In this document: piece by piece, positions 18,412 to 52,755 of the stretch
Position numbering within the stretch: position 1 is the stretch's first letter
Layout of the letters: each line of letters begins with the position of its first letter
Virus record (IMG/VR): IMGVR_UViG_3300030385_001875
Span: 1-64,000 of that record
DNA: 64,000 bases
Reading direction: 5' to 3' (one strand)
From: a virus
Position numbers and translations under genes: made by a program
The notes under the pieces: model-generated
The model's input: only the letters and a program-made list of their open reading frames with translations
Told to the model about the DNA's origin: nothing
The model's database searches: none

Positions 18412-21400
18412 ATGCCTAGAGCGCAAAGTGAATTTTCGGTAATGCAGGAACTCGGTAATGCTATCGGGCAAACTAATGAAGGTGAACTGGACGTTAATGT
18501 AGTAAACGCCTTGTCTACCGAAGATCTGAATAGTGCGATAGCTGATTTAGAAGCGATACGTGCTGCGTTGGTTGACGGTGGGGGTGTCAGTATTTCTGTA
18601 GCTAACATGGATGTTGATCTCGATGATTTGGAGAAGATTTTTAATGGTGGATCATCTGTTGGTGTAGGGGGGCCTACTTTTGATATAGGTCAACTGATGA
18701 CTGACATTAAGGCATCTATTCAACTCTTGGACGATGCTGTAGGTACAACTAACGGCACTTCTCCCACTAAAGGGAAACTTGTTGGCGGGAAAGATAGCGG
18801 GGGAGATTTTCAGCCTCTAAAGATTGCTACAGATGGTACGTTGCAAGTAGATATAGGGTCCACTATAACAGAAACGAATTCAGCAGCTATCAAGACTGCG
18901 ATAGACACGATTACAGCAGCGGTTAATAGTAGTAAGATGGATGTTAATCTGTCAACTTCAGGGATAACTCTTCCTGTTAGTGGCAGCTTTTTTCCTGCCA
19001 CGCAACCTGTATCAGGGACGGTAGGGGTTTCTGGAACGGTAACGGTTGATGGAAGTGCTTCAACGCAGCCCGTATCAGGGACAGTTACAGAAACAAACTC
19101 AGCAGCTATAAAAACCTCGGTAGAAGCACTCGACAACGCTATTGCTGGTAACGAAATGCAGGTAGATGTAGTTACTATGCCTAACGTGACAGTAAATGGA
19201 ACAGTAACTGCTAATGTGGGTACAGGGACTCAAGGTGTTTCGGGTACTGTTGCTGTTTCAGCTGTTTCAGGTACGGTAACCACTACTGAAGGTAGCGGAA
19301 CAACGATAGCTACTAACACAGCTAAAATAGATGACGTTCAAGCTGCTGATGCGGGTACTAACCCAGCCAAAGGCGTGATGATGGGGGGTACTGACGGTAG
19401 TAATTTACAGTACCTTTTAACTGACGGTCAAGGTCATTTGCAAGTAGATGTCCTTTCAGGTGCTTCAGGGGGTACAGTAGATACGGAACTGACAATTGCT
19501 GACTTGGATACGGGTGTTGGAACTGACACCAAAGCTGTTGTGGGGGTAGCATTAGCAGAATCAGGTGGGGGTCAACTTTTAGGTTCAGCTAACCCTATGC
19601 CTGTAAGCGGGACGTTCTGGCAAACCACTCAACCTATAAGCGGTTCAGTTACAGAAGCGAATTCAGCAGCTATTAAAACTGCGGTAGAAGCACTCGATAA
19701 CGCTATTGGTGGTAACGAGATGCAGGTTGATGTTGTAGCTGCGTTACCAGCGGGAACTAACAATATCGGTGATGTTGATATAGCTTCAGCTTTACCTGCT
19801 GGAGGGAATAATATCGGTGATGTGGACATAGCGTCTGCAAGTTTCGAGGCTTCTGATGGGGCCACTGCACCCACCAAAGGTGTGATGATAGGAGGAAAAG
19901 ACGGGGCTGATTTCCAAGTACTTAAAGTTAATAGTGACGGTGAGCTTGTGGTCAACCTTGAAGCATCCAGTCTTAATATCGGTGACGTAGACATAGCTTC
20001 TGAACTTCCAGCAGGGTCTAATAATATAGGTAACGTTGATATTGCTTCTGCATTACCTGCTGGAGCTAATGCCATAGGTAAACTGGCAGCCAACGATGGA
20101 GTGGATATAGGTAACGTTGATGTGACCAGTCTACCTTCAATACCAACAGGGGCTAATGCCATTGGTAAATTGGCAGCTAATTCGGGAGTGGATATCGGTG
20201 ACGTTGATGTACTTACTCTTCCTCCGATACCAGCAGGGACTAATAACATAGGCGATGTGGATGTTGCTTCTGCCTCGTTTGAACATGCTGAAGATGAAGC
20301 ACATACAACTGCTGATAAGGGTGTTCATATATTAGCAGTCAGGAAAGACACTGCTGCTGCTCAAACAAATGCTGATGGAGATTACAGTTCACTATTAACA
20401 GATTCTGATGGTAAGTTGCATGTTAATGCTGGACCAATGGCTGCTCAGATAGCGGGTGATGTCAATATTGGAGATGTTAGTCTCGCTCCAAGTCTTGCTG
20501 ATGGGGGTTCATTAACGGGTGTTGAAGGTCTTGCTGTAGGTGGTAAGGATGGCAGTGGTAACTTCCAGATGCTAAAAGTTAACGCTGACGGGGAACTGGA
20601 AATTAACTTAGAGGCTTCCACTCTTAATATCGGTGATGTCGATATAGCTTCTGAACTTCCTGCTGGCACGAACAACATTGGTGACGTAGACATAGCTTCG
20701 GCACTTCCTGCCGGGGCTAATGCGATAGGGAAATTAGCAGCTAACTCAGGTGTTGATATCGGAGATGTGGATGTACTTACTCTTCCAGCGTTACCCGCAG
20801 GGACTAACAATATAGGTGATGTCGATATTGCCTCTGCCATACCAGCAGGTAACAATAATATAGGTAACGTAGATGTGGTTACTCTTCCTAGTTTAGCAGC
20901 CGGGACTAATGCTATTGGCAAATTAGCTGCTAACTCAGGGATTGATATCGGTGATGTTGACGTAACCTCTTTACCGTCTTTAGCAGCGGGTACGAATAAT
21001 ATCGGTGATGTTGATATTGCCTCTGCTGGGTTTGAAGCTGTTGACGGAGCTACTGTTCCAAGTAAAGGCGTAATGATAGGCGGGAAAGATGGGTCTGATT
21101 TCCAAGCTGTAAAGGTCAATAGTGATGGCGAACTACTTGTTAATTTGGAAGCGTCTTCCATTAACATTGGAGATGTAGACATAGCTTCTGCATTACCCGC
21201 AGGAAACAATAATATAGGTAACGTGGACATAGCGTCTTCTTTACCCGCAGGTGCTAACGCTATAGGTAAATTAGCTGCCAATAGCGGAGTAGACATTGGC
21301 GATGTAGATGTCACATCTTTACCGTCTTTACCAGCGGGTGCTAACGCTATAGGTAAATTAGCTGCTAATAGCGGAGTGGATATCGGGGATGTGGACGTTA

Positions 21401-22683
21401 CTAGCTTACCTTCACTACCCGCAGGGAATAATAATATAGGGAATGTGGACATTGTTACACTGCCGTCTTTAGCAGCAGGAACTAACGCTATTGGCAAATT
21501 AGCTGCTAACTCAGGGGTTGATATCGGTGACGTTGATGTAACGTCACTACCAGTACTTCCAGCGGGAAACAATAATATAGGGAATGTCGATATTGCGTCT
21601 TCTCTTCCTGCTGGGACTAATGCGATAGGCAAGTTATCAGCCAATAGCGGAGTAGATATTGGTGACGTTGATGTAACCAGTTTACCATCACTTCCAGCAG
21701 GGAATAACAATATAGGTAACGTTGATATTGCCTCTGCTTTGCCCGCAGGTACTAATGCTATAGGCAAACTGGCTGCTAACACTGGCGTTGATATAGGCGA
21801 TGTAGATGTAACATCGTTGCCATCAATCCCTGCGGGCACGAACAATATTGGTGACGTTGATATTGCATCTGCCAGTTTTGAAGCTGCGGATGGAGCTACT
21901 GCACCAAGTAAAGGTGTAATGATAGGTGGGTTAGCTGGCACTGATTTTCAAGCACTTAAAGTTAATGCTGATGGAGAGCTTGTTGTTAATCTTGAAGCGT
22001 CCACTCTTAATATCGGTGATGTCGATATAGCTTCTGAACTTCCTGCTGGCACTCAAAATATTGGGAATGTAGATATAGCCTCTGCTATACCTGCTGGGAA
22101 TAACAATATAGGCAATGTGGATATAGCTTCTGCGTTACCAGCGGGTAATAACAATATAGGTAACGTAGACATTGCGTCTTCTCTTCCTGCTGGGACTAAT
22201 GCAATTGGTAAATTATCAGCCAATAACGGGGTGGATATAGGTGACGTTGATGTTACTTCGTTGCCAGCATTACCAACTGGAAGCAATGCGATTGGTTCTG
22301 TAACAGTTACTTCCGCACCAACAACTGCTGTAACAGGTAGTTTTTATCAGGGAACTCAACCCGTAAGCATAGCTTCTATGCCAACAACTGCTGTCACTAC
22401 TGTACAGAGTGCTTTCGATACAGGGCAAAATGCTGCTGTAGGTACTACTAGAGTACAAGTTAAATCAGCATCTCAGGCATTGCAATCTGGTATAACGGTT
22501 GTAGCTTCTAGTGCAAATACTGCTAGTATTTTTCTTGGTGATAATGGTGTTACTAGTAGTGGAGGCACTATAGGATTTGAGTTAGCTGCTGGTGCAGGGT
22601 TTACTTTTAGTTTAAGTAATGCTAACTTGTTATATGCCATTTCAGCATCAGGAACTCAAACTGTAAACTTCGTATCAATGTAG
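18412..22683 (+). CDS. Repeat-rich tail fibre-like protein
   Basis: 1,423 residues, with an AGGAGG ribosome site. The N-terminal 440 residues contain related modules with TNSAAIKTAVEALDNAI and V-rich GTV segments. The remainder is built from dozens of short repeats of the kind IGDVDIASALPAGTNN and IGKLAANSGVDIGDVDV, interrupted by a recurring spacer (KGVMIGGKDGADFQ, then VNLEAS). Such regular V/I-D-V periodicity suggests a beta-solenoid or trimeric fibre shaft. The last about 65 residues are a globular domain shared with the preceding gene. Receptor-facing fibre is the best inference; it has no enzymatic motif. Confidence 0.7.
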   Translation: MPRAQSEFSVMQELGNAIGQTNEGELDVNVVNALSTEDLNSAIADLEAIRAALVDGGGVSISVANMDVDLDDLEKIFNGGSSVGVGGPTFDIGQLMTDIKASIQLLDDAVGTTNGTSPTKGKLVGGKDSGGDFQPLKIATDGTLQVDIGSTITETNSAAIKTAIDTITAAVNSSKMDVNLSTSGITLPVSGSFFPATQPVSGTVGVSGTVTVDGSASTQPVSGTVTETNSAAIKTSVEALDNAIAGNEMQVDVVTMPNVTVNGTVTANVGTGTQGVSGTVAVSAVSGTVTTTEGSGTTIATNTAKIDDVQAADAGTNPAKGVMMGGTDGSNLQYLLTDGQGHLQVDVLSGASGGTVDTELTIADLDTGVGTDTKAVVGVALAESGGGQLLGSANPMPVSGTFWQTTQPISGSVTEANSAAIKTAVEALDNAIGGNEMQVDVVAALPAGTNNIGDVDIASALPAGGNNIGDVDIASASFEASDGATAPTKGVMIGGKDGADFQVLKVNSDGELVVNLEASSLNIGDVDIASELPAGSNNIGNVDIASALPAGANAIGKLAANDGVDIGNVDVTSLPSIPTGANAIGKLAANSGVDIGDVDVLTLPPIPAGTNNIGDVDVASASFEHAEDEAHTTADKGVHILAVRKDTAAAQTNADGDYSSLLTDSDGKLHVNAGPMAAQIAGDVNIGDVSLAPSLADGGSLTGVEGLAVGGKDGSGNFQMLKVNADGELEINLEASTLNIGDVDIASELPAGTNNIGDVDIASALPAGANAIGKLAANSGVDIGDVDVLTLPALPAGTNNIGDVDIASAIPAGNNNIGNVDVVTLPSLAAGTNAIGKLAANSGIDIGDVDVTSLPSLAAGTNNIGDVDIASAGFEAVDGATVPSKGVMIGGKDGSDFQAVKVNSDGELLVNLEASSINIGDVDIASALPAGNNNIGNVDIASSLPAGANAIGKLAANSGVDIGDVDVTSLPSLPAGANAIGKLAANSGVDIGDVDVTSLPSLPAGNNNIGNVDIVTLPSLAAGTNAIGKLAANSGVDIGDVDVTSLPVLPAGNNNIGNVDIASSLPAGTNAIGKLSANSGVDIGDVDVTSLPSLPAGNNNIGNVDIASALPAGTNAIGKLAANTGVDIGDVDVTSLPSIPAGTNNIGDVDIASASFEAADGATAPSKGVMIGGLAGTDFQALKVNADGELVVNLEASTLNIGDVDIASELPAGTQNIGNVDIASAIPAGNNNIGNVDIASALPAGNNNIGNVDIASSLPAGTNAIGKLSANNGVDIGDVDVTSLPALPTGSNAIGSVTVTSAPTTAVTGSFYQGTQPVSIASMPTTAVTTVQSAFDTGQNAAVGTTRVQVKSASQALQSGITVVASSANTASIFLGDNGVTSSGGTIGFELAAGAGFTFSLSNANLLYAISASGTQTVNFVSM
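19738..22290 (+). repeat. Internal coding repeats of the fibre gene
   Basis: The DNA is a patchwork of imperfect direct repeats encoding the short IGxVDI(A/V) units. Unit copy number and order vary along the segment, so slippage or recombination could change fibre length. Silent substitutions between copies show that the copies have diverged at the DNA level. Confidence 0.75.
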
Positions 22684-22693: not shown

Positions 22694-25600
22694 ATGGTCC
22701 CTTTTGGATATATACCTCCCCCCTCATCTGGTGGTGGAGGTGGTGGCGGTGGAGCAGGTGAAGTAGAGATTGCTGTAACTGTTGCGACTAGCCCTAATAG
22801 ATTTGTGATTGATGGAGTTTCACAACAGGATTTCACTATTCTTCCGGGTATGATCTACAAGTTTGATGTTAGTGCAAGTAGTAATTCTGGTCATGTATTA
22901 GCTCTTTCACTCACTGATAATAACTCTGGCAGTTCGGAATATACTTCAGGACGAACAAGATCAGGAACTCCCGGTACTACTGATGCTTATGTCCAATGGG
23001 ATGTGCCTCTGAATGTAGCTGATACTGTCTATTATTATTGTACACAGCACTCTGCTATGGGTGGAGCTTTGACCAAGACAGGTACTGGTGGTGCTGCTGG
23101 TATTGCTGAAATGGAATTTACTACAGATGGGCTTGAAGATGATATCGCAGCTCTAGCATTTAAGGTTGCAGCTAATAGCAGTTTGGATGATTTCAGTTTA
23201 TCTAACCAAATAATAGATGATTTTAAAACAGAAGCTGATTCAAATATAGATACCAGCTTAAGTGTTGATGAACAATATTCTTCTACTAGGTGGGGTGGTT
23301 CTGTTGTAGGATCAGGTGCATTTACGACTACGGGTAACCCTACATCAGCAGAGGTTGGAAACGAGACAATCTTAACTTGGACCCAATCAGGTTCTTTTAC
23401 CCCTACTGCCACTATGTCTGTAGAATATTTTGTAGTTGCTGGTGGTGGAGGTGGTGGCGGTAGTAGAGGTGCTGGTGGTGGTGCTGGAGGTTACAGAACT
23501 GCAACAGGTTTCTCCGCAACTGCACAGCAACATACTGTCACAATTGGATCAGGTGGATCTGGAACTGGAGCTGTGCAGCAAACGGGAGTAAGTGGTCAGT
23601 CCTCGGTATTTTCTTCAATTTCTACAGTTGGAGGGGGTGGTGGTGGTGGTGGTTTTAACCCCGGCTCATGGAGTCATGGATTAGTTGGTGGATCTGGTGG
23701 TGGTGGTGGAGCGAATAGTGGAAATGGTGGTGCTGGTACTAGTGGTCAAGGTTATGCAGGTGGTACCATGTCTGGTAATCAGGGTGCTGCTGGAGGTGGA
23801 GGTGGTGGTGCAGTTGGATCTAATCAATCAAATAATGGGAATGGGGGAGCTGGTGGTGTTGGTATAGCCACTTCTATTACTGGTTCATCCGTTTATTATG
23901 CTGGTGGCGGTGGTGGTGGAGCTAATGGTGGTAGTGCAGGAGCTGGTGGTAATGGAGGTGGTGGAAATGGTACTAATAACAGCTCAACTGCTACAGCTGG
24001 TACAGTAAATACTGGTGGTGGTGGTGGTGGAGCAGGTTCTGGCGGTACAGGTGGAGCAGGTGGATCAGGTAAAGTTATGATAAGATTTGCAACTCCAGTA
24101 CCCGCAGCCAATAATGATATGGATTTAGTTTCTAATGCTTTTACTGTTTCTTCAGTTCCCACACAAGCTGATATAGTCTTGATGTATGATGATTCAACAG
24201 GAACGGCAGTTTTAAATACTGATCTGAAAGTATGGGCCAGCAGAGATAATGGTAGTACTTGGACTCAAGGCACACTGTCAGGTAAAGAAGTAATGGGAAC
24301 TGAGATACTTACTTCTGCTCATGATATCTTAATAGCAGATCAGCCTAGTGGTACAGCTATGCGATATAAGATTTCTACTCATAATCAAGCTGTTACTTTA
24401 GTCACAAGCATAGGTGCTGTCTCTTTAGGCTGGAAAGATCCTGCTACAGCTATTGTAACTGCTGGTGGTAGTGGTGGCATAACAGATTTAACAGTGGCAA
24501 CTTCTGGCTTGGAAGATGATATCGCTGCCCTAGCATTCAAAGTTGCAGCAGCTAACAGCTTGGATGACTTTAATTTATCAAACCAGATGGTAGATGATTT
24601 CAAGACACAAGCAGATTCTGCTATTGATGAGGCTGGTAGCACTAATATTACAATAGATTCATATGGTGCTTCTCAAGCTGGACTCCTAGATACTGGTAAT
24701 AGATGGAGTGGGTTTGTTGCAGGATCAGTAGCTGATTCAAATTGGAGCAGTGTTGGAACGCTTATAAACGGAACTGAAACTGTAGCTAGTGGTTCATTTC
24801 CTGAGACAAGTAGTACTGGACATACAGTTACATTAACAGGAGTTACACAAACAACTGGATCTGGTGGTAAATTTGGTGAAGGATATACTTTTGGTTCTTA
24901 TGCCAGCAATCATTATATGGCTATGCCAGATCATGCTGATTTCAATTTTGCAGGTGGTAGTTTCACTATAGAATTCTGGATAAAATTCACTGCAACTCCA
25001 AGCAATTATGCGACTATTTTTGGACAGGGTTCACAAACTGCTGAACACGCCCTTGTTTTGGGTGATTGGGGCGGTACTACAGATGAACATAATTTAGAAT
25101 GGATAGCTGAAGGTGGACTTGGGAGTGATATGAATATGAGGGGCAGTTCTGGTTCCAACCAAACTGGCCCACTTAACGTATTGAATACTTGGTATCATAT
25201 TGCTGTAGTTAGAAATAGTGATTTGTGGAGTATATATATTAATGGTAATTTTAGAAAGAGTGAAACTCACTCAGGAACACTTTCAGATTTCAGTGATCCA
25301 ATGGAGATTGGTAGAAGATCGTTAAACTCCGCATATAGAGGTAGTTTTGAGGGTGTTTTAGATGACTTTAGAATCACTAAAGGTGTAGCAAGATATTCTG
25401 GAACAGTACAAACAGATTGGGGTAATTTTAGTGAAATAACAGCAGCCTTTCCTACTAGCGGAACCGCCAATAATCCTCAGTATAACAATATAGAATTAGT
25501 CTCTGATATACAGCCTGCATCAACTGCCCCTAGTTCAGGAGATGTGGTTCTCTTATATACTGATACTGTTGGCACTGCTGTTCTCAATACAGATCTTAAG

Positions 25601-27124
25601 GCTTGGGTAAGTAGAGATAATGGTACAACATGGACAGAAGGTGTATTAGCAGGTGGAGATGCAGTGGGTGATGAGAAACTTGCCTCTGCACATGATATAG
25701 ATATCTCAGGTCAGCCAAGTGGTACACAGGTTAGATATAAGATAACTACCCATAACCAATCTGCAACTAAGTTAATATCTATAGGTGGAGTAAGTCTTGG
25801 ATGGACTAATCCTACTGATGTAACTTACTCTACTGTAACTGCTGAACGTGGTGTATCTGTAGTAGCTAACAAGGCTGCATTACAAGCTATTACACCTTCT
25901 GGAACTCTGGGACAATTCTATTTTGTTACTGCTACTAAAGCTATGTATTATTCCAATGGTAGTGTTTGGACACTTCTAGGGAGTAACGCTCCGGGTTGGG
26001 GTAGCTTTACAGAAGATTATGGAACACTTACACATACTAATTCAAGTAGTAATCCAGTAACTCATTATCCTACGGCTACGGGTGCAGCAAATAGTGGAGA
26101 TCCACAGGCAACTTCTATCTTAGCCGTTACTGATGAAGCTGAGAGTATTATTGTCTATGCAGCACCTACCAATATTATAGTTTCAGATTGTTCTCACTCG
26201 CCATCACATACAGGAGCACAAACCTCTGTAGATGCTGGACTTGTTATTGGGTCTTCTTCTGGAGAAGTAGAAGTAACACCCCCAAGCGCATGGGTAGATG
26301 ATACTGTTACTGCTACTGTTACAGCTAGTGATGGTATTAATATTTTAGAAAAGAACATAACATGGAATATTGGTGGATTGTGGCCCGCTAATGATGCAGA
26401 TTTTTCTGATGTCACTTTCTTATCACACCTTGATGGTGCAATTGCTGATGTAAGTAATGATAGTCGTGCAGCCGTTGCTGACACAATGGTATGGAGTACT
26501 GCTCAGAAGAAATGGGGTTCTGGCAGTGCAGACTGCACTACTGGAACAAGAAGATTATGGTATGCAGATTCTACTACCTATCCTATTACTAGAGAGTTTA
26601 CATGGGAATGCTGGTTTAAATTAACAGGTTTAAATACTGGTGGTCAGATGTATAGAACTCAAACCCTTATGGGTAGAGGAAATAATTATTCTGGGCTCAT
26701 TATAAAAAAAGATGCAGATCCGTCTGGTATCCCTAATATGACAGGTAGTCAACTATCAGGTCATAGTCTAGGGTTTTGGGTTGATACCCCAACACATACT
26801 TATCCTTTCTGGCCCCATCATACACTGATGACAGTAGATGGTCTTTGGCATCATGCTGCTGTTAGTTGTGATGCAACTAGGATTTATATGTTTCTGGATG
26901 GAGTTTTATCTACTGAGTCCCAAGTATCATCTTGGGCTTGGACAGGTCAGCATACAGATGCATGGTCATCTTCTGACACCAATAGAATGTCAATTGGTGG
27001 TGGAATTTGGAACGAAGGTAGCATGCCCGCTTTAGGTTATATTGATGACTTCAGGACTACTATAGATACATGTCGGTATACAGCAGATTTTAATGCTCCC
27101 GCAGGAGCATTCCAAGATCAATAA
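22694..27124 (+). CDS. Large multidomain tail fibre with Gly-rich, cupredoxin-like and LamG-like domains
   Basis: 1,476 residues. A Pro/Gly-rich N-terminus is followed by a cupredoxin-like module ending in DTVYYYCTQHSAMGG (about residues 111-125), which carries the Cys-x2-His-x2-Met copper-ligand pattern. Next come a long Gly-rich domain (about 250-465), two copies of a GLEDDIAALAFKVAA module (about 148 and 605), two copies of a VLNTDLKxWxSRDNG module, and two LamG/concanavalin-like modules (FTIEFWIKF near 760; FTWECWFKL near 1,302). These are binding modules, so adsorption to glycans or surfaces is likely. The gene looks lower in GC than the head genes. The stop overlaps the next start. Confidence 0.7.
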   Translation: MVPFGYIPPPSSGGGGGGGGAGEVEIAVTVATSPNRFVIDGVSQQDFTILPGMIYKFDVSASSNSGHVLALSLTDNNSGSSEYTSGRTRSGTPGTTDAYVQWDVPLNVADTVYYYCTQHSAMGGALTKTGTGGAAGIAEMEFTTDGLEDDIAALAFKVAANSSLDDFSLSNQIIDDFKTEADSNIDTSLSVDEQYSSTRWGGSVVGSGAFTTTGNPTSAEVGNETILTWTQSGSFTPTATMSVEYFVVAGGGGGGGSRGAGGGAGGYRTATGFSATAQQHTVTIGSGGSGTGAVQQTGVSGQSSVFSSISTVGGGGGGGGFNPGSWSHGLVGGSGGGGGANSGNGGAGTSGQGYAGGTMSGNQGAAGGGGGGAVGSNQSNNGNGGAGGVGIATSITGSSVYYAGGGGGGANGGSAGAGGNGGGGNGTNNSSTATAGTVNTGGGGGGAGSGGTGGAGGSGKVMIRFATPVPAANNDMDLVSNAFTVSSVPTQADIVLMYDDSTGTAVLNTDLKVWASRDNGSTWTQGTLSGKEVMGTEILTSAHDILIADQPSGTAMRYKISTHNQAVTLVTSIGAVSLGWKDPATAIVTAGGSGGITDLTVATSGLEDDIAALAFKVAAANSLDDFNLSNQMVDDFKTQADSAIDEAGSTNITIDSYGASQAGLLDTGNRWSGFVAGSVADSNWSSVGTLINGTETVASGSFPETSSTGHTVTLTGVTQTTGSGGKFGEGYTFGSYASNHYMAMPDHADFNFAGGSFTIEFWIKFTATPSNYATIFGQGSQTAEHALVLGDWGGTTDEHNLEWIAEGGLGSDMNMRGSSGSNQTGPLNVLNTWYHIAVVRNSDLWSIYINGNFRKSETHSGTLSDFSDPMEIGRRSLNSAYRGSFEGVLDDFRITKGVARYSGTVQTDWGNFSEITAAFPTSGTANNPQYNNIELVSDIQPASTAPSSGDVVLLYTDTVGTAVLNTDLKAWVSRDNGTTWTEGVLAGGDAVGDEKLASAHDIDISGQPSGTQVRYKITTHNQSATKLISIGGVSLGWTNPTDVTYSTVTAERGVSVVANKAALQAITPSGTLGQFYFVTATKAMYYSNGSVWTLLGSNAPGWGSFTEDYGTLTHTNSSSNPVTHYPTATGAANSGDPQATSILAVTDEAESIIVYAAPTNIIVSDCSHSPSHTGAQTSVDAGLVIGSSSGEVEVTPPSAWVDDTVTATVTASDGINILEKNITWNIGGLWPANDADFSDVTFLSHLDGAIADVSNDSRAAVADTMVWSTAQKKWGSGSADCTTGTRRLWYADSTTYPITREFTWECWFKLTGLNTGGQMYRTQTLMGRGNNYSGLIIKKDADPSGIPNMTGSQLSGHSLGFWVDTPTHTYPFWPHHTLMTVDGLWHHAAVSCDATRIYMFLDGVLSTESQVSSWAWTGQHTDAWSSSDTNRMSIGGGIWNEGSMPALGYIDDFRTTIDTCRYTADFNAPAGAFQDQ
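27092..27111 (+). promoter_or_regulatory. Perfect hairpin over the halogenase start codon
   Basis: AATGCTCC (27092-27099) and GGAGCATT (27104-27111) are exact reverse complements around a CGCA loop. The ATG of the halogenase gene lies in the left arm and the only GGAG in the right arm, inside the end of the fibre gene. This would make halogenase translation dependent on ribosomes moving through the fibre gene. Confidence 0.6.
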
Positions 27125-28256
27125 GATTAAGCAAGCAAGGAAAATAACTGTTTTAGGGGCAGGTAGTTCAGGATGTATAGCTGCACTTCATTTCGCACTT
27201 GCAAGAAAATATTCATCATTAGGTTGGAAAATTCCAAGAGTTGAAGTTGAACTTATACATGATCCAGAAATATCTCCTGAACCTGTTGGTCTTGGTACTT
27301 TACCAAAAGTATCTACAGCTATCTGGTCTGCATTAAATCAGACTGATTGGCATACTAATCCTATGGATGCTGTACCTAAGTTGGGGGTATTGTATGAAGG
27401 TTGGGGAAATACGGAAGAAGCTTTTGCACCACTAGCATATGATTATGTTGCAATGCATTTCAAGCCATCAAAGTTTCAGGAATATATTTTAAATTCCAAA
27501 CAGTTTGATGTGATTGAAGCTAATGTTAAAGATTATGAAAGTATTGATTCAGATCTTATTGTTGATTGCAGGGGTACTCCCACTGATTGGGATAATTATG
27601 ATGAGTTATTGAACCCACTTAATACAGTATTGTTAGGTGAACTTGATGAACAAGATCCTAAACAATTATGGACAAGAGCAGTAGCAACACCAAATGGTTG
27701 GACTTTTGTAATACCTGTAGGAAATTCTACGTCATATGGATATCTGTATAATAATAAATTAACATCTGATGTTGATGCAATTTCCAATTTTGAAGAGATG
27801 TTTGGAATAAAAGAAACTAAGAAATTATCTTTCAAAAATTATATAGCTAAGAATCCTTTTGTTAATAATAGGATTGCGTTAAACGGTAACAGGTTATTTT
27901 TTATAGAACCATTAGAAGCTACATCACTTATGACTCATTTAGATTGGTGTAGGATGCTTTGGAGATCTGTAATTATGAACAAAATGACAACTGATAATGC
28001 TACTAACCAACTTAAAAAATATGTTAATGAAGTAAAGAACTTTATACTTTGGCATTATCAAGTTGGATCAAAATATGACACACCTTTTTGGAATTACGCC
28101 AAAACATTACAGATTGATGATCCCTCTTTTTATAATATAATAAAAGGAATAGAAAGTCCTAACTATGGATTTTATGAGAAAGACTCACAAGCTGTCTATG
28201 GACAGTGGGGTCTTCATCCTTTTAAAATGTGGTATGATAGGGTAATTTCAGCATGA
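27093..28256 (+). CDS. Flavin-dependent halogenase (tryptophan halogenase family)
   Basis: 387 residues. The FAD-binding Rossmann motif is VLGAGSSGCIAALHF (residues about 20-34), followed by EPVGLGTLPKV. AVPKLGVLYEGWG (near 92-104) corresponds to the region with the catalytic lysine of PrnA-type enzymes. WTFVIP (near 208) takes the place of the diagnostic WxWxIP, with the second Trp changed to Phe. FIEPLEATSL (near 271) is the conserved second flavin/active-site strand. These enzymes use FADH2, oxygen and halide to halogenate aromatic substrates; a related phage enzyme (VirX1) was reported from a cyanophage. AT-rich compared with neighbours, suggesting acquisition. The substrate is unknown. 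Confidence 0.75.
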   Translation: MLPQEHSKINKIKQARKITVLGAGSSGCIAALHFALARKYSSLGWKIPRVEVELIHDPEISPEPVGLGTLPKVSTAIWSALNQTDWHTNPMDAVPKLGVLYEGWGNTEEAFAPLAYDYVAMHFKPSKFQEYILNSKQFDVIEANVKDYESIDSDLIVDCRGTPTDWDNYDELLNPLNTVLLGELDEQDPKQLWTRAVATPNGWTFVIPVGNSTSYGYLYNNKLTSDVDAISNFEEMFGIKETKKLSFKNYIAKNPFVNNRIALNGNRLFFIEPLEATSLMTHLDWCRMLWRSVIMNKMTTDNATNQLKKYVNEVKNFILWHYQVGSKYDTPFWNYAKTLQIDDPSFYNIIKGIESPNYGFYEKDSQAVYGQWGLHPFKMWYDRVISA

Positions 28257-28522: not shown

Positions 28523-29332
28523 ATGGTTGTTTTACAGCGTGTATCTCCGGGGATAGGGGACGCTATTATGATGCAACCTTTGATAGAAAACCTTTACAGG
28601 GATAATCATAAGGACTTCGGGTTAGTAACTAAGTTTCCTGATCTATTCCGAGGAATGTATCCTATTTATGATACCCCTCCCGAATTCGCAGAAGTTATAG
28701 ATGTTGACGATCCTTGCCCATGCAGTTTATATGAATCTGAGGTGAAGGTTATTAAGAAAGGCCGAACACAACTGTTCCTTGAAAGCGGTGGGTATACTTA
28801 TAAAAAAGAAGCCCCTAGACTGGAACTGACAGCGGTGGAACAGGGGAAAGCCGAGGAGTTTAAAGGAGAGCAGGGTGTTCAGATCGGGTTGAGTACAACA
28901 TCCGCTGCTTACGGGAACGTTCTTGATGGGTGGAGAGATTACCCGTACCCTGAAGCATTAGCGAAATCCTTAAGTTCTCTTGGGCATGTTGTTTGGATGC
29001 ACACAGAATCTTTACATAGTAAATATGCAGAAGATTTCAAAGGCTCGTTACGTGACCTTATGATAAGGATAAAGAGTCTGGACATAATGGTAGCTGTCGA
29101 TACGGCTGCTGTTCATATAGCTGGAGCGTTAGGGGTGACAGTGTACGGGCTTTTCGGCCCGACTGACCCTGCTTTAAGGATAGCAGATTATACTTCTACG
29201 TTCTGGTTACCGAAATACGAAAAATGTGGCAGGGCATACTGTTGGTATGATCCCTGTAAATGGCGTTTTTGTTTGCAAAGCCTCAAACCTAAAACAATAC
29301 AAAAAAAGGTAAAGGTACTTTTAAATGGATAA
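28523..29332 (+). CDS. Glycosyltransferase family 9 (heptosyltransferase-like)
   Basis: 269 residues, directly following the previous stop. The N-terminus VLQRVSPGIGDAIMMQPLIE matches the GT9 start that binds the acceptor/nucleotide loop. The signature VAVDTAAVHIAGALGV then TVYGLFGPTDPALR is diagnostic of ADP-heptose:LPS heptosyltransferases. The C-terminus has a cysteine cluster (KCGRAYCWYDPCKWRFC) like many GT9 proteins. It probably transfers a sugar to host LPS or to a virion/host glycan. Confidence 0.8.
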   Translation: MVVLQRVSPGIGDAIMMQPLIENLYRDNHKDFGLVTKFPDLFRGMYPIYDTPPEFAEVIDVDDPCPCSLYESEVKVIKKGRTQLFLESGGYTYKKEAPRLELTAVEQGKAEEFKGEQGVQIGLSTTSAAYGNVLDGWRDYPYPEALAKSLSSLGHVVWMHTESLHSKYAEDFKGSLRDLMIRIKSLDIMVAVDTAAVHIAGALGVTVYGLFGPTDPALRIADYTSTFWLPKYEKCGRAYCWYDPCKWRFCLQSLKPKTIQKKVKVLLNG

Positions 29333-29960
29333 ACTGGAAATAGGTGGTGGGAGTAACCCTGCTGAAGGGTACTTAAACCTCGATATCAACGCTGATTGCA
29401 AACCTGATATAACAGGAGATGTGAGAGCGTTCTTTACACCTGATGTGGATCTGGAAGATTATCCTGATTTAATGGGAATCGATGAGTTTGTGTTTGACGA
29501 AATCAGGGCGACACATTTCGTTGAACATATCGAGTGGATATACCAGAAACCCATGTTTGAATGGTTTTACAAGGTATTGAAACCAAGCGGTAGAATTGTA
29601 ATAGAGACCCCTAACTTGCACTGGATAATAAAGAGTTACCTTAAAAATTATGGTTCAGGAGAGTATCCCCAAGAAGACCACCCTGACCTTAACGGTACTA
29701 ATGATTTTGTCCCTTGGGTTAATTTTAAGCTGTTTTCTGGTTGCAGTCCCGGTGACTATCATCATGCTATGTTCGACAAAGTTTGGATGAGACGGGTTTT
29801 AAAAGAAACAGGGTTCACTCCTACGGTAAAGGCGAAAGGGGCGTACATACAGGCTATAGGGGTCAAGAAGGATTTGGGTTTGCCAGAGGAAGAGTATTAT
29901 GTTCCACGAAATAATCGAAGATGGTGGGATGCGTTTAAGATGGGGCAGTGGATAAAATGA
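29325..29960 (+). CDS. SAM-dependent methyltransferase
   Basis: 211 residues, start overlapping the GT9 gene. Motif I KLEIGGGSNPAEGYLNLDI, then IRATHFVEHI and FYKVLKPSGRIVIETPN, are typical of class I methyltransferases acting on sugars or small molecules (predicted SAM-dependent methyltransferase group). Located between two glycosyltransferase-like genes, it probably methylates a glycan or a precursor. Confidence 0.75.
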   Translation: MDKLEIGGGSNPAEGYLNLDINADCKPDITGDVRAFFTPDVDLEDYPDLMGIDEFVFDEIRATHFVEHIEWIYQKPMFEWFYKVLKPSGRIVIETPNLHWIIKSYLKNYGSGEYPQEDHPDLNGTNDFVPWVNFKLFSGCSPGDYHHAMFDKVWMRRVLKETGFTPTVKAKGAYIQAIGVKKDLGLPEEEYYVPRNNRRWWDAFKMGQWIK

Positions 29961-30886
29961 AGGTACAACCTCTGTTTGAGTTAGGGATGTTTTCAAATAA
30001 CCGTATACATGCGACCTTAAAGAAATACGCACCTGAGACAGTAGTGTTCACAGGCGAATACGGAAGAACCCCTAACGGTATGCATTCTAGATGGGGGATA
30101 GATACTTCCTGTGATGCCTATATTTTTCATGCAACCCCCGGAGGTGATTCTTACCGACAACTGTTCTGGGGTGAGAAGGACTGGGTTGTGACGTTGATGG
30201 AAGAGGTTGAAAGGAAACCTAAAATAATCTTGTTTGAAGTACACGACCTACTGGTTATGTACCCTGAATGGATTAAAGATAAAGATGTTATTCAGTCTTA
30301 TAAGATGTCGGATTGGTTTCCTGAACACCCTAACTTGATTTCCTATCCTATGCCCGGAAGCGGAAGGTGGATCGATGAAGATATATTTTACAGGAAAGAA
30401 GAGATTGGGAAGAATCAGGGTCGCATTCTTGTGAGTTGTGACCAGTTGAAACGCAATCTATACGAAACCATATCTTCTATGGGGCATCCCCTGCATATTC
30501 TAGGTACGAGCAATCAGCGTTTTTTGGGGCAGATGAAAGAGAATGATACTTGTGGTACTATATATCCGCAAGACTCGGATAAGCTAAACGATCTCTATAA
30601 CACTCTTGACTATGCAGTGAATTTTCAGGTTGTCGGGTTTGAAAGCTGGTTGGTTGAAGCGAGATTCTGCGGGGTGAAATGCTATTATCCTGACTGTGAT
30701 CATGCAAGATCCCTTTTCGGTGATGAGAATGTAGGATTCTTTGATCTTGAAGATATAGAAGGGACGCTCAACCTTGAGAACGATATGACTGAGAGTGATA
30801 TCGCTTACAGCAGACAGAAATGGGGTGCGGAACACAGAGTACCTTTGTTTTGGGAAGAGGTACGGAGCAGGATAATCCCTGAATAG
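29957..30886 (+). CDS. Putative glycosyltransferase
   Basis: About 309 residues from the ATG at 29957, which overlaps the previous stop (ATGA); a GTG three codons earlier is possible. The outline GRILVSCDQ, a central linker, then LNDLYNTLDYAVNFQVVG and ESWLVEARFCGVKCYYPDC fits a GT-B fold glycosyltransferase C-terminal half, where the conserved acidic residue contacts the sugar nucleotide. Weakly similar in layout to the gene at 52756. Assignment is by context and outline. Confidence 0.5.
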   Translation: MKVQPLFELGMFSNNRIHATLKKYAPETVVFTGEYGRTPNGMHSRWGIDTSCDAYIFHATPGGDSYRQLFWGEKDWVVTLMEEVERKPKIILFEVHDLLVMYPEWIKDKDVIQSYKMSDWFPEHPNLISYPMPGSGRWIDEDIFYRKEEIGKNQGRILVSCDQLKRNLYETISSMGHPLHILGTSNQRFLGQMKENDTCGTIYPQDSDKLNDLYNTLDYAVNFQVVGFESWLVEARFCGVKCYYPDCDHARSLFGDENVGFFDLEDIEGTLNLENDMTESDIAYSRQKWGAEHRVPLFWEEVRSRIIPE

Positions 30887-36426: not shown

Positions 36427-38124
36427 ATGGCTAAGTTTACAGAAGCTGAACTTGGATTGGGCGCATCAGCTATCGTTAAAAACATAATGACTTACAAGAC
36501 GATGGCAGATAAAGCTCGTACAAGTCGAAGAAGAGACGAAAGTAAACAGCTTTTTCAAAGAGCGAATTTAGAGCTTGATAAGCTAAAGACCGTGATCGAT
36601 GTTAAAAAGCTCCAACAGGATCAAGCATACAAAAAAGGTATCCTAGCCCATCAGGACAAAATTCTTCAGTTTAAACTTAATAATGAAAACAGCGTAGAGA
36701 ACAGACAGAAATCTGTTCAGAGTCTAATAAAAAATGAAGCTGTCGGCTTAACTCCTGCACAGATAAAGAACCTCCATATCTGGGCAGCTACAGACAACTC
36801 TAGTTTAATAGATGACATTCTTTCTGGACCTCAAAGCAAGCAACCTAGTGTTAATGATAGAAGCAATTTAAATAAATTGGGAGTTGACCTCCAATCCGAA
36901 GTACACGGGGTTCCTGCTACAAAGTCCCAGCAAGAGGCAGAGGGCTATGAAGGTGGGGGGTACGCATCCCGAAAGCATAAACCTCTCTCAGACCTAGTTA
37001 AAGATTACATTACAGATTACAATACTCCCGACGAAACTCGGGCTTTAGTTCACAAAGTAAGAAACTTGCAGATGCTGGTAAGCAATTTTGCTAAACCTGA
37101 GAATGCACGATGGATAGGTGGTTCAGAAGATATGGCATTAGACCAAATTGAAAGAGCGTTAAGTTCTCTCAATACTGTCGAAAACCCGCTTAACCCTAAA
37201 CAGGGTCGGCACGGTTTCATGTGGCATAAAAAGGCAGGAGGCCAGATAACCGACAAACTAGCTAAAGAAGCTGGGCAACAGTTTGGTCAAGTATGGAATA
37301 CTGCTGCCGACTATGAAGTGGGAATGGCAAAGGAACTGAACAACCTGCGATTAATGGTTAAAGCTGCAAAGGGTAAAGGACAGCCCCAGCAACAACAAGG
37401 ACAAGCCCAGCAACAACAAGGGCAACCCGGAGAACAGAAAGTCCGTGAAGGTGCAGCAACAGATATATGGAATAGCCAATCGGAAGCTCTTAAGGAAGAG
37501 GATCAGGGTGGGCTTTCTAGTAAAATGACGGAAGGTGTCGGTCCTAGAGATAAGGATCAGCCTAAAGTTTATGAGAAGCTAAGTCGTAGACAGCAAGGAA
37601 GATCAGGTCGTGAAGGAGATCTAGGGGACACGACACAAAATCCTGCTGTTTTACGAGCGCATCTGGGAGAAGACATGACGAGCGAGGAATCATCTGGAGA
37701 TTACCATTTCAAACCAGAGGGTAATAGAGGGCTCATCAAGGACGTAGTAGATAAGGCAGCATCATTTTGGAATACTAGAGGAGGTCAAGAGCTCGAGATT
37801 AAGGACCGCATAAATTCTATCCAAACGATGGTGACATCTCTTGAAAGGGGTGAAGGTCCTCCTAGACATCAGAAAAAAGTATTTGAAGATATGATGAGTT
37901 ACGCTCACGCTCTAGGTTGGCCTGAACCAGAACAGTCAGACTTAAGACTTTCTGAAGAATGGAAATCAAGGATGTTAGCCTTACTCAAAAAATTCACTCG
38001 AAAAGAGATTAAAGCACCTACAGAGAGAAGAGACATGAGTGGAAGTCTTTTAAAAGACACACAAGGTCAATGGTACAACAATATCAATAAGGGGGGTAAC
38101 AGTGGCTACCAACAAAACTACTGA
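36427..38124 (+). CDS. Internal virion (ejection) protein
   Basis: 565 residues, GGAGGAG ribosome site. Highly charged and helical, with a Gln-rich repeat (PQQQQGQAQQQQGQ) near residue 320 and no recognised enzymatic motif. It is sandwiched between the transglycosylase and the giant protein and overlaps the latter by 23 bases, so it is probably an ejected core protein. The assignment is by context. Confidence 0.55.
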   Translation: MAKFTEAELGLGASAIVKNIMTYKTMADKARTSRRRDESKQLFQRANLELDKLKTVIDVKKLQQDQAYKKGILAHQDKILQFKLNNENSVENRQKSVQSLIKNEAVGLTPAQIKNLHIWAATDNSSLIDDILSGPQSKQPSVNDRSNLNKLGVDLQSEVHGVPATKSQQEAEGYEGGGYASRKHKPLSDLVKDYITDYNTPDETRALVHKVRNLQMLVSNFAKPENARWIGGSEDMALDQIERALSSLNTVENPLNPKQGRHGFMWHKKAGGQITDKLAKEAGQQFGQVWNTAADYEVGMAKELNNLRLMVKAAKGKGQPQQQQGQAQQQQGQPGEQKVREGAATDIWNSQSEALKEEDQGGLSSKMTEGVGPRDKDQPKVYEKLSRRQQGRSGREGDLGDTTQNPAVLRAHLGEDMTSEESSGDYHFKPEGNRGLIKDVVDKAASFWNTRGGQELEIKDRINSIQTMVTSLERGEGPPRHQKKVFEDMMSYAHALGWPEPEQSDLRLSEEWKSRMLALLKKFTRKEIKAPTERRDMSGSLLKDTQGQWYNNINKGGNSGYQQNY

Positions 38125-41100
38125 GTCTCTTATATTTGGGGGGCAGACATATTCATATAAACTTCCTCGAGACCTTACTGAAGAAGAACAAGTTAGGATT
38201 AGCAGCTACACAAAGACTTTCCCTGAACTCGAGCCTTTGATTCAACAGAGACTTAACGATAAAGGGGCAGATGAGCTTATGAGGTTTTTTGATAGGCTCG
38301 ATACCCCTGAGAACATAATCAAGTCCATTAAAAAGGTTCAAAGCGGTGAAGTAAGCTCAGAGAGATTTTATGGAGACATAGCAGCAGGAACACAGACAGG
38401 TCTTGCTGCTGACCAATCACTAGGTGGGACACTTAGAGCAGAGGCTACACAGAGAGCTCCACATTTGGTGAAAACGTTCGCTAAGAATTCCCGAGATATC
38501 ATGGTGAACCTGAAAGAAGACCCTGTTAAGTTCCTTAAGGAAATCGGTTGGTCTATGATAACCTCACCTATTGTCATAGCAGCAGGTGGACTTGAGACAA
38601 CAGGGAAACTGTTTTCTGGAGATTATGCGACTGATCCTGATTGGAGTTGGAGACCGTTAACAGGTACAGGTGAGAAAGGGAAAGGGGTAGGGTTAGCTGG
38701 TGCTTTACAATTTGTACCTATGCTTGGTGCTGCTACCAGAGCAAGCCGATGGGCAAGGAACCTGAAAGGGTTCAGTGCAACAACCAAAGCGGGTAAAGTT
38801 ATGAGCGGAGCGTCAATAGCTCTAGGTAAAGCTGCTCGGTTTACTCCTGAAAGGGCTGTAGGGTACAAGCTTTCTAACACTCTTGCTGATTTACCTTTAG
38901 CTTGGAGAGATGCACTTTCAACCGCTGGTAACCTCGCTGAAATAGATCCTCTTGAACTAGTAGCTGACCTGCCTTTCCAACTGATGTTGAATGCTCCTCA
39001 GAGAATAGGTCTTCCTACCTTTGCCAGATACATTAAGAAGAGACAACTCAGGAAACAGGCAACCCAAGCAGCAACCCAAGCAGAAGCTGCTGCTAAAGAT
39101 CCTACACAGGTTCATAGGGCAGATATCACTCCCGAAAACTTTGATGAAGAGTTTTCTAACCTGATTGATACCATCACAACGATGGCAGAAGAAAAGGTAG
39201 GCCCAAAAGGTGTTTACACACCGTATAGAGATTTCCTGATGAATCTGGGTGACCAGCTTACGGAAATGGAGATGACTCCTGAAGGGTTAACGGAAGCTAG
39301 ACATCTCGTTGATGCTGCTAAAGAGGTTATCGATGAACTCACTACTAACGTCAGATCTATACTTGAAAACGCTGAACAACATGACCAAGTTCAGGAGATG
39401 CGTAGAGGGCAAGGATGGGGCGAAGAAGAAGTTAAAAATGGACTATCTGTTGTTGCAGCCACGATTAATCAGGAAATACAAAGATTAACAGAAGCTCCGT
39501 TCGCAACCAAAGGAACTGTAACAGCAGAAGAAGCAGAGGGAGTAAAAGCAGATAACGCTAAAAGATTAGAAACCCTGAAAGATGCTTTAGGGCAAATCAG
39601 CGGGTTTGAGCCCACCTTAGAAAACCTTACCTTGGCAGAACGGTTGATGGAATTTACTATCGATCCAGCAAACGTTGGGTATGAGGGTATAGGTGAAAGC
39701 ATCACCTCCGTAACTGAACATCTAGAAGAGTTAGCTTTAGGGTTACTTAGTAACAGTATGGGACAACAAGCCAAAAGCGGTGAAGTGTTAGATGATATTT
39801 TTTCGGACTTCCCGTTTGAAGCTTATACAGATATGAGTCGGTTCTCTAACCGTCCTTTCAGGTTCATAACTGCTCTTGATCAGATGGCAAGCGAAGAACT
39901 GGGAAGAGAAGCTACCAGAGCAGAAAAAGACGCTTACACTCGACGATTCGCTGCTAGTCTTATTAAGATGGCTGGAGCACTCCGTAATGATGGACCTACA
40001 ATGACCACGCTTGTTAATAGTGTTAACATTATTCGTGAGATTATTGCTGGAGTCTTCTCAACACCAGAGAGGACTCAAGGGTTACTTGAAACTGATGTTG
40101 CTTATATTCCTCAAGGACCTGCTGTAGTAGGGAAACCTTATTCAGGTTGGAATCCTCCCACTGAACAGGAGGCAACGCAGGAAGTAAACGAGGAGGATAA
40201 AGATGTAGAGGTAGAGGAAGAGGTAGAGGAAAAGGTAGAGGAAGAGGTAGAGGTAGAGGAAAAGGTAGAGGGAGATGTAGAGGAACCTGCACCTATTCAC
40301 GTCTCCCTAGATGACATCCTTGCAGACGACACAGTAGTAGCAGACGACACAGTAGAAGAGGTAGAGGAAAAGGAAGAGGTAAAACCACTTACGGGTAAGA
40401 TCGCAGCAGAAATAGATAAGTTTGGCGGTCTTGATGACATGTTTAGTGCTGCCCCTTCAATGGCAGACGAAGAATTACGTTCACAAACCCCTCTTACTGA
40501 TGCTCAAAAAGAAGAGAAAGCACGTCAATTCGCCTTAAAAATTGGAGTGCTACTCTTTAAGGAAAAGGTCAATGATTTCGGTGAATTTCTCGACTCAATG
40601 GTGGAGCTCCTAGTAAAAAGCCCTGAAGATATCCGCAAACTTGAGATAATGAAGGGGCCTATGGTATCTACTTGGGGGCAACTGCAAGGAGAGGCATATG
40701 GGAAAGGAGACACAGATTTTGCCAACAGCATGACACCATTAGCAGAAGTTGCTGCCTTGGTAGATAAAAGGATGTTTGATCTAACAGGTGAAGCTTTAGA
40801 AGAAGGAGATGAAGATGAATCCAGTGATGATGCTGGTCCAGAAAGGACGGGAGCTCAAGGAACGAGAACGGGTATTCAGGGAGATGCAGAAGCAGGAGGA
40901 GGAGAAGCAACGGATGGAGAAACTGTTTCAGGAGACAGAGGAGAAACTGAAGGAGACCCAGTTATTGGGGACGAAAGAGTCGGAGAAGATATTGCAGTCG
41001 ATCCAGAACCATCTCCAGAAGAAGGCCCCGTAGAACAACCCAAACAACCTATTATCCAGAGAATTAAGGATTTCTTCTTAACACCTGTCAGTCAGTCGGA

Positions 41101-44100
41101 TCGTCGTGTTCAGCAAGAGTTATCAGAACAGAAAGAACATATATCCTATCAAGCTCAAGACATCTTAACCCCTGATGGGGAATATGCGTTCGCTAATGAA
41201 GACGGGACTGATGCTGCCCATGACCATAAAGCGAAACTGGTTACTTCTTCCACTCTAGGTATGACAGTCTCCCCGCAAATAACTTATATTCCTGAAGGGC
41301 TAGACACAAATGTACAGGTCGTAACAAGGGATGAGACAGGAGCGATTGTCAAAGATGCAGAAGGTAATCCTGTCTCCGAGACAAAGAACATTGTTAGGGA
41401 CGGGTTACTAAGTAAGGTTCAGTTAGAAGCTATAGCTGTTGCAGGACAAACATGGTTGACACGAACGTATCAAGGGTTCCGCAAAGCGATAATGTGGGGA
41501 CACGGAACAGGTTCTGGTAAAGGAAGAATGATTGCGGGTGCTATCGTAGAGGCTTTCTCTAGAGTTCCCTCAAACGGGAAACGCAGGGCTTTATGGATAA
41601 CAGAATCTAAGTCGTTAGCTGAAACTGATGCGATGAGAGACTGGGAAGCTTTAGGCCAAGATCCCGAAATGATCTTCAATTTTGATAAAAGTAAGTGGGA
41701 TAAAAAGACAGCCAACACTACCAAGAGAGATGAGCAGGGTGTCACAGGTAACGTGGTTAACTTCTTACCTGATGAAGGGGTAATGACTATTACCTATCAT
41801 TCGTTGGGGTCAGGGGGAGGAGCAATTTCTGATATATTAAAGAACACTAATTTGTCTACTGAAGAAATGGATCGACAGATAGATGAAATTCTCCAGAAAA
41901 AGAAGGGGACCCAGTATCACAATTTAGTTACAGTTTTGAACTGGTTAACTTTTGGAGAGAAACAACGGATTACTTCTCACAAAACGATGAAAGATTCTCA
42001 TCTGAAATGGAAAGATTTTAGCGGTGTTATCGCTTTTGATGAAGCTCATACCATGAAAAAAGTGGGGACAGGAGCAGGGGCGGGAAGTAATGCGATGATA
42101 GCATTAGGGCTCCAACACCAAACACCTGAAAGCAGAATAGTTTATGCTACTGCGACGGCTGCATCTGAAGTAGATAATTTCCGTTATGCTTCTCGATTAG
42201 GGTTATGGGGTGAAGGGACAGAATTCGATAACGCTGATGATTTCATTACACATGTAGGTCGAACAGGTGTGGCAGGGCTGGAAATCCTAACTAAAGACAT
42301 GAAAGCGTTAGGTCTTTATGTTGCAGCACAACTCAGTTTTGAAGGTGTAGAAGTTGATCCTCTTCATATCGAATTAGATGATCAAGAGATAGAACGTTAT
42401 AACACTTTCGTTAAAGCGTTAGATGACGGGTATAAAGTTCTGGAACAGATTCTAGCTGACAACAGGATGAACCTCAGTAAAAATGATATAACCCAGATGA
42501 GGAGTCAATGGTGGGGCGAACATCAACGACTCGTTAATTCCTATCAAGCAGGATTGGTCACCAGTCAGATGCTGGACGATTTCCAGAATAACTACGGATC
42601 TGAAAACTACACCCCTGTTTTCCAGATGATCTCTACTGGAGAAACATCGTTTGAAAGAAGTATTGACAGGTTATTGTCTAACCCTAAATATACTGACAAG
42701 AACGGTAATATCACTATTCCGCAAGACGAAAACGGTAATTATATTCTATCTGAAGAGATGGTTAATGAAATCGATATTACAGGGAAACAAGATCTCATAG
42801 CCCAGATAGATAAGATGACAGATATACGTCCTTGGTCTGTAGGGCCTGACGGAGATAAGTCTATAAGTGCTAATCGGAAGGATGATTTAAAAGCTGATGG
42901 ACAAAAGTATGGGGCTGAGATACCCGCACCTATAGAAGACCTTGTACTGATTAAGGCCCGATTAATGGAAAGTCTCGAAACTGTTACACTTGCCACAATG
43001 CCGTTACATAGTCTCATAGAACATTTCGGTGCTGAGAACATAGCAGAAGCTACAGGAAGAAATCGAAGACTTATTAGCCGACCTAAAAAAGGTGGAGCAG
43101 AAGGTGAAAGAGAATACATTATAGAGAGGCACGGAAATAAAGGGAAATCGTCCGATATACTGGACTTCAAAAACGATGACAAAGAAGCTATTGTCTTCTC
43201 TATAGCAGGTGCTACAGGGCAAAGCTATCACGCTAGTAACGAATACAAGAACAAACGACAGCGAGTTCATTACGTCCTGCAACCCGGATGGGAAGCTGAT
43301 AAAACAATGCAGGGTTTCGGTAGGACTAACAGGACTGATCAGGCATCTGCACCTATCTATCGTATTCTTTCAACCAACCTACCTTCTTCCAAAAGGTTTT
43401 CTTCTGTTATTGCTAAAAGACTGCAAATGTTAGGAGCGTTATCAGAAGGAACACAAAAAGCTGGTGCAGCAGAGATGTTCTCAGGGGCTGAAAGTATCCT
43501 GCTAACACAAGAAGGAGTTCAAGTTTTAAGGAACTTCATCCGTGATACATGGTTCCGTTCTACTGGAACTGGTTGGAACCCTAGATCTCTTGCTAATCAA
43601 GAAATTATAAACGATTACTTAATAAACTTACAACATGAACCTGAAAAGACTCTTGTCCTAAGTAATCCCGACGGGTCATTATCCAAGCTTCAGAGCCTAG
43701 AAGTAGAGACAGGACTTGACTTAACAGAATTAGCGCAGATAGAGACAGACATCTCGTTAATCACGCAGGTATATGAAGCAGTAGCAGAACAGTTCGATTT
43801 CGCTAACGAAGCGTATAACAGAATGGGGTTAGAATGGGATATAGCAAATCAGGATGAGATTAATAGTGATCCAATGACTGATCCAGTATACATGCCTGTT
43901 CTTGGAGGCGGTACTGTTGATATGTCTCAATGGTTAAACAGGATGATGACACTTCCTTTCGGTTGGCAGAATTCTATTTTCGGTCTTATTGCGGGTAGAA
44001 TACAATCAGAATGGGATCAAGCGTTATCATTGGGGATTGCTGACACGGGGATTGAATCTGTAACAGCACATAAGATTAAACTCAATCCAAAGATGGAAGA

Positions 44101-52746: not shown

Positions 52747-52755
52747 ATTCAAACG

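What the first reader, a model, noticed from the sequence alone, without database searches (positions are those of the whole stretch)
27093..28256. Phage-encoded flavin-dependent halogenase
FAD motif, PKLG lysine region, WTFVIP and FIEPLEATSL motifs identify a tryptophan-halogenase family enzyme. Phage halogenases are rare (VirX1 of a cyanophage is the known case). It lies in the tail-fibre region, next to glycosyltransferase and methyltransferase genes, and its WxWxIP motif is altered (Phe for the second Trp), so its substrate may be unusual.
Basis: partly seen in the sequence, partly recalled or inferred. Interest (0 to 1): 0.75.

Follow-up and report, generated by a model that had tools for sequence, protein, structure and literature searches.

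The report
Short phage flavin-dependent halogenase-type enzyme
This marine phage carries an intact gene for a shortened enzyme of the tryptophan-halogenase family; hundreds of marine viruses carry close relatives, so it is not rare, but I found no report that this compact viral branch has been tested, and its target is unknown.

Summary
In detail: ORF 27093-28256 (+, 387 aa) is an intact PF04820 / phrog_2928 protein with GxGxxG, catalytic Lys (K96), WTFVIP and FIEPLEATS (catalytic Glu E275). Its AlphaFold model superposes on solved tryptophan halogenases over about 357 residues (Z up to 35.5). The Trp-to-Phe change is not a quirk of this protein but the signature of a well-supported, almost exclusively viral clade of short proteins (about 360-400 aa) that lack the roughly 50-aa insert after the HxF motif and much of the C-terminus of the long type (VirX1, PrnA). 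New here: (i) recognition of that clade; (ii) its enrichment beside 2OG-Fe(II) oxygenases; (iii) this protein has lost, against its own clade, residues at the flavin/substrate site (Q67L, H112A, F114L, S276A) while keeping K96 and E275. Best explanation: an FADH2-dependent halogenase-type tailoring enzyme with an opened, altered pocket, plausibly working on a large substrate such as a virion protein or its glycan. Halogenation and substrate are inferred, not shown. Protein hydroxylation (QhpG-like) is the main rival.

The parts
27093..28256 (+). short flavin-dependent halogenase-type ORF, 387 aa (true start may lie up to ~15 codons downstream)
27156..27173 (+). GxGxxG dinucleotide-binding motif (residues 22-27, GAGSSG)
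   Evidence: G22, G24 invariant in 19 phage homologues
27378..27380 (+). codon of K96, equivalent of PrnA/RebH catalytic Lys79
   Evidence: invariant in A1 and A4; aligned to the RebH Lys
27423..27434 (+). residues 111-114 FAPL: place of the substrate-stacking HxF (Trp2) motif; clade has H112 50/53, F114 53/53
   Evidence: role of Trp2 region (PrnA 101-105) from PMC8269204
27699..27716 (+). WTFVIP (residues 203-208), clade form of the WxWxIP motif
27900..27926 (+). FIEPLEATS (residues 270-278) with catalytic Glu E275 (27915-27917); S276 of the clade is Ala here
22694..27124 (+). upstream tail-fibre-like protein, 1476 aa (Gly_rich_2, two Laminin_G_3 stretches); overlaps the halogenase ORF by 32 nt; GC3 0.20, like the halogenase (0.21)
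28523..29332 (+). GT9 (heptosyltransferase-like) protein
   Evidence: PF01075 1e-7
29325..29960 (+). methyltransferase-like protein
   Evidence: PF13489 4e-5, below curated cut-off; phrog_5399 0.003
29948..30886 (+). 312-aa protein of unknown family in the same cluster
   Evidence: no hit below 0.001 in Pfam or PHROGs, none below 0.01 in NCBIfam

Best explanation
The ORF encodes a stripped-down FADH2-dependent halogenase-type enzyme of an almost exclusively viral clade. Shown: family, fold, conserved Lys/Glu pair, monophyly of the short clade, absence of the insert that follows the HxF motif in long enzymes, enrichment beside 2OG-Fe(II) oxygenases, purifying selection in relatives. Inferred: a host flavin reductase supplies FADH2 (no reductase was recognised among the window proteins searched); the flavin hydroperoxide makes HOX from halide, which K96 guides to an electron-rich aromatic activated by E275. 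Because part of the substrate-binding module is missing, and because relatives sit beside 2OG oxygenases, Gly-rich tail fibres or capsid/tail genes, the substrate is most plausibly an exposed residue of a virion protein or its glycan, decorated late in infection. The window's own protein has a changed pocket (A112, L114, L67, A276), so its substrate probably differs from that of its relatives.
For: PF04820 2e-32, phrog_2928 1.8e-74. Model pLDDT 88.9, pTM 0.88; the listed top Foldseek hits are all flavin halogenases; VIA-align Z 35.5, rmsd 3.0, 357 residues to AbeH; MibH, a peptide-Trp halogenase, Z 31.1; VirX1 Z 28.1. K96 and E275 invariant in 54 aligned short proteins. Short clade is one side of a branch with support 96/88. 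Spacing from K96 to H122 is 24-27 aa in the short clade, 66-90 in the long type (45 in the Campylobacter phage protein). 2OG genes: 32/188 genes at distance 1-3 versus 14/254 at distance 7 or more in 51 non-redundant loci, Fisher p = 1.2e-4; 18/51 loci have one within 3 genes. L024, L026 and L099 have the order Gly-rich fibre, then 2-3 2OG oxygenases, then halogenase. Six of 51 lie by gp23 major capsid, two by a tail-tube gene.
Against: No member of the short clade was found to have been assayed in the literature searched. Contexts vary: 14 of 51 loci show none of the scored neighbours and others lie by nrd or glutaredoxin genes, so a virion substrate is not implied everywhere. No 2OG oxygenase was found in this window. 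The window protein departs from its clade at 25 of 136 conserved positions (median row 7), some at the active site, so it may be impaired. Gly-rich enrichment alone is not significant (p = 0.09). AlphaFold does not model FAD, and residues 266-270 next to the active site have low confidence.
Confidence: 0.45

Rival explanations
1. It is a non-halogenating FAD monooxygenase that hydroxylates an aromatic residue of a protein, like QhpG, which dihydroxylates a Trp of QhpC; the 2OG oxygenases would be fellow hydroxylases.
For: The only NCBIfam hit of the window protein is QhpG, below its cut-off (E 6.6e-4; 18.7 bits against 240). QhpG has a halogenase-like fold and a protein substrate (PMC7876137). 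Clade-wide change of WxWxIP, a motif held to prevent monooxygenation (PMC8407142).
Against: Sequence and fold are closer to halogenases that use the Lys/Glu pair, and both residues are kept. QhpG was not among the profile hits in PDB sequences up to E 10. WxWxIP variants or absence occur in genuine FDHs such as Bmp5 (PMC8407142).
Confidence: 0.25
2. It halogenates a small molecule (host metabolite or antimicrobial), as an auxiliary metabolic gene like cyanophage prnA or the jumbo-phage cluster predicted to make a halogenated metabolite or capsular sugar decoration.
For: VirX1 accepts many small aromatics (PMC8407142); predicted jumbo cyanophage cluster with halogenase, 2OG oxygenases and methylases (PMC7824862). 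The HxF substrate motif is kept in most of the clade. AG-345-E15 has its copy upstream of sugar genes.
Against: No recognisable small-molecule pathway next to the gene in the window; the insert that follows HxF in long enzymes is missing.
Confidence: 0.2
3. The window copy is a degenerating accessory gene, recently acquired, no longer fully active.
For: 25 of 136 clade-conserved positions changed, including Q67, H112, F114 and S276; GC 33.6% against 43% for the window.
Against: Full-length open frame, K96 and E275 kept. Two other clade members deviate more (32 positions). The tail-fibre gene before it has the same low GC3 (0.20), so low GC3 is not private to it. The dN/dS value is for relatives, not for this copy.
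Confidence: 0.1

Closest known systems
phrog_2928 / PF04820 phage 'tryptophan halogenase' (prnA, T4-GC 212), short form as in S-ShM2/S-RIM14, Sf-CH8 and marine virus AG-345-E15
   Same: same short clade, 38-44% identity over 91-95% of the length, WxFxIP (WxFxIH in S-RIM14), Lys and Glu kept
   Different: window protein lacks HxF (FAPL), Q67 and S276 of its clade
VirX1 (cyanophage Syn10, PDB 6QGM)
   Same: phage FDH, same fold (Z 28.1 over 345 residues), same catalytic Lys and Glu
   Different: long type, 531 aa, WxWxIP, EPLESTG; separate branch in the tree
Tryptophan FDHs PrnA, RebH, PyrH, AbeH
   Same: fold and catalytic Lys/Glu
   Different: 18-20% identity; window protein lacks the insert after HxF and most of the C-terminus with the Trp4 motif; HxF lost in the window copy
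MibH and other peptide-modifying FDHs
   Same: fold (Z 31.1); precedent for peptidyl Trp halogenation
   Different: longer (541-aa chain), in RiPP clusters; the window's substrate is unknown
QhpG / LodB flavoprotein maturases
   Same: halogenase-like fold in QhpG, similar length (profiles of 423 and 361 aa), protein substrates (PMC7876137)
   Different: only a sub-threshold match to QhpG; no quinoprotein partner recognised nearby

Membership tests
PF04820 Trp_halogenase / phrog_2928 | profile match over the curated cut-off | tested here: met
   113 bits against cut-off 21; phrog_2928 1.8e-74
Flavin-dependent halogenase | GxGxxG FAD motif | tested here: met
   residues 22-27 GAGSSG; G22 and G24 invariant
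Flavin-dependent halogenase | catalytic Lys (PrnA K79) | tested here: met
   K96, invariant in all alignments
Flavin-dependent halogenase | catalytic Glu (PrnA E346) | tested here: met
   E275
Flavin-dependent halogenase | WxWxIP motif | tested here: not met
   WTFVIP; clade-wide WxFxIP. Not strictly defining: variants or absence are reported in genuine FDHs (PMC8407142)
Flavin-dependent halogenase | Fx.Px.Sx.G tunnel motif or variant | tested here: inconclusive
   FIEPLEATS: F and P kept, S is Ala, G is Ser; most of the clade keeps S
Flavin-dependent halogenase | fold | tested here: met
   VIA-align Z 35.5, 357 residues; Foldseek E 3.9e-21
Flavin-dependent halogenase | halide-dependent product formation | not testable with these tools
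   needs biochemistry
Tryptophan FDH (free L-Trp) | Trp2 HxF stacking motif | tested here: not met
   FAPL in the window; HxF in most of the clade
Tryptophan FDH (free L-Trp) | Trp4 motif (YYxxF...NFW...YY) | tested here: not met
   C-terminus YGQWGLHPFKMWYDRVISA has only a faint remnant; 54 residues follow W333 against 100 or more in most long types
QhpG / LodB protein-Trp maturases | NCBIfam equivalog match | tested here: not met
   18.7 bits against 240 for QhpG; no LodB hit for the window protein

The most novel reading that the evidence does not exclude
A viral clade of miniature flavin halogenases, partnered with 2OG-Fe(II) oxygenases, post-translationally halogenates (or oxidises) aromatic residues of phage tail-fibre or capsid proteins: enzymatic halogenation of virion proteins, widespread in the ocean.
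Probability: 0.22. Interest if true: 0.85.

Novelty: new variant of a known kind. Interest (0 to 1): 0.42.

Why it matters
Phage 'tryptophan halogenases' have been listed as auxiliary metabolic genes since 2010 with only speculative roles. Separating the short WxFxIP clade from the long VirX1-like type shows that one annotation covers two anatomies, gives a compact FDH scaffold with a more open pocket, and ties it to 2OG oxygenases. That points to a testable role in decorating large substrates, possibly the virion itself.

Tried and rejected
Single-protein scans of IMG/VR with the halogenase and with the 836-aa tail protein found no relatives, so there is no close genome to compare gene gain or loss. 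Megablast of the first 24 kb against phages: no match. Relatives cannot be drawn for a virus record. The genome-contig scan with A3 had no usable pattern; with A2 it gave 3 MAG contigs. The one whose genes were read (L120) looks phage-like, so the short clade is taken as essentially viral; a distant WxFxIP protein, L138, lies in one Chloroflexota genome of 201 searched. Chance or pseudogene rejected as the main reading. 'Rare in phages' rejected. I first read the HxF (Trp2) motif as part of the missing insert; alignment shows it precedes the insert and is kept in most of the clade, but not here. Gly-rich neighbour enrichment was not significant. The VirX1 paper is not held. QhpG does not appear in the displayed top fold hits, which is no evidence of absence.

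Full report
Observation. ORF 27093-28256 (+) encodes 387 aa without internal stops. It matches PF04820 (2e-32), phrog_2928 (1.8e-74) and solved FDHs. The ATG overlaps the preceding tail-fibre-like gene by 32 nt; relatives start about 15 residues later, so the start is uncertain.

Fold. AlphaFold2 on 54 short relatives gives pLDDT 88.9, pTM 0.88. The listed top Foldseek hits are all flavin halogenases. VIA-align gives Z 35.5, rmsd 3.0, 357 residues for AbeH, 31.1 for the peptide halogenase MibH and 28.1 for VirX1. FAD was not modelled.

Distribution. tblastn finds 85 phage records, mostly cyanophages, also Pelagibacter and Campylobacter phages. Two alignment queries find 332 and 503 IMG/VR stretches encoding relatives (the two sets overlap). 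In 84,980 cellular genomes only three MAG contigs match; the one whose genes were read has phage-like content. Published counts agree that FDH genes are common in cyanophages: 20 of 153 (PMC10452541), and T4-GC 212 PrnA in 2010 already listed genes of 1104-1167 bp beside 1437-1593 bp (PMC3037559), i.e. both forms under one name.

A short clade. Of about 118 loci with an extracted ORF, 110 read GWxF rather than GWxW. The tree (IQ-TREE, LG+C20) puts all 47 short rows on one side of a branch, 96/88, apart from 10 long phage proteins, two cellular rows lying on the long side. One distant cellular WxFxIP protein (L138) was seen in a Chloroflexota genome. Long branches at the base of the short clade mean its deep shape is unsure. 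In the short clade the distance from catalytic Lys to H122 is 24-27 aa against 66-90 in the long type and 45 in the Campylobacter phage protein; the missing piece follows the HxF motif, and the C-terminus is also shorter in most. PrnA/RebH-type Trp4 residues are absent or faint. Purifying selection is strong (median dN/dS 0.08).

This copy. Against its clade the window protein differs at 25 of 136 well-conserved positions (median 7). Among them are Q67 to Leu (52/53 Gln in the clade; the preceding VG and following T are the flavin/Trp1 region), H112 to Ala and F114 to Leu (H 50/53, F 53/53; the place of the substrate-stacking HxF, Trp2 motif of PMC8269204) and S276 to Ala next to catalytic E275. 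K96 and E275 stay. So an altered substrate is plausible, but for reasons other than the Phe in WTFVIP, which the whole clade shares. The gene has GC 33.6% against 43% for the window; its GC3 (0.21) equals that of the fibre gene before it (0.20) and lies below all other genes listed, which fits a fibre-plus-enzyme unit of foreign origin but does not prove it.

Context. In the window: a fibre with Gly-rich and LamG domains before it, an 80-aa protein, GT9, a methyltransferase-like and an unknown protein after it. In relatives, 2OG-Fe(II) oxygenases are enriched within three genes (odds ratio 3.5; 32/188 against 14/254, p = 1.2e-4; 18 of 51 non-redundant loci), in L024, L026 and L099 as fibre, 2-3 oxygenases, halogenase; others sit beside gp23 capsid (6), tail tube (2), nrd/GIY-YIG or glutaredoxin genes. 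The gene is thus a mobile accessory with a bias to virion and oxygenase surroundings. No 2OG oxygenase was found in this window.

Mechanism. Shown: fold, family, catalytic pair, clade, neighbours. Inferred: FADH2 from a host reductase, HOX formation, delivery by K96, activation by E275, and a large substrate because the pocket is opened. Precedents for protein or peptide substrates on this fold are MibH and the hydroxylase QhpG (PMC7876137), whose model is the only NCBIfam hit of the window protein, far below its cut-off. I put 0.45 on halogenase-type tailoring of a large substrate, 0.25 on protein hydroxylation, 0.2 on small-molecule halogenation and 0.1 on decay.

Novelty. Phage FDHs and even this PHROG are known; I found no paper that separates the short WxFxIP clade or assays it, within an open-access library only. 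Hence a new variant of a known kind, moderate interest.

Noticed in passing
window 38102-50878 +: 4258-aa protein with AAA_34 and Helicase_C_4 (strawberry notch) domains, no PHROG match: a giant polyvalent helicase-type phage protein.
   Followed up: partly
window 18412-22683 +: 1423-aa fibre-like protein built of many repeats of the kind NNIGDVDIASALPAG; long antisense ORFs (e.g. 20445-21941 -) are by-products of the repeats.
   Followed up: no
window 51811-56986: Radical SAM protein, methyltransferase and NAD-dependent sugar epimerase: a second possible glycan or modification cluster.
   Followed up: no
L007, L008, L010, L012: Four phage homologues have Gln in place of the catalytic Glu (EPxQ); a review (PMC8407142) reports that Glu to Gln inactivates an FDH.
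   Followed up: no
L016 4377-7482 and L013 4686-7797: Two long halogenase genes in tandem in Syn10 and S-RIM44; the Syn10 pair includes the 530-aa protein taken here as VirX1 by its length.
   Followed up: no
L019 3659-6118: Closest relative (50% identity) lies between a 2OG-Fe(II) oxygenase and a radical SAM protein.
   Followed up: partly
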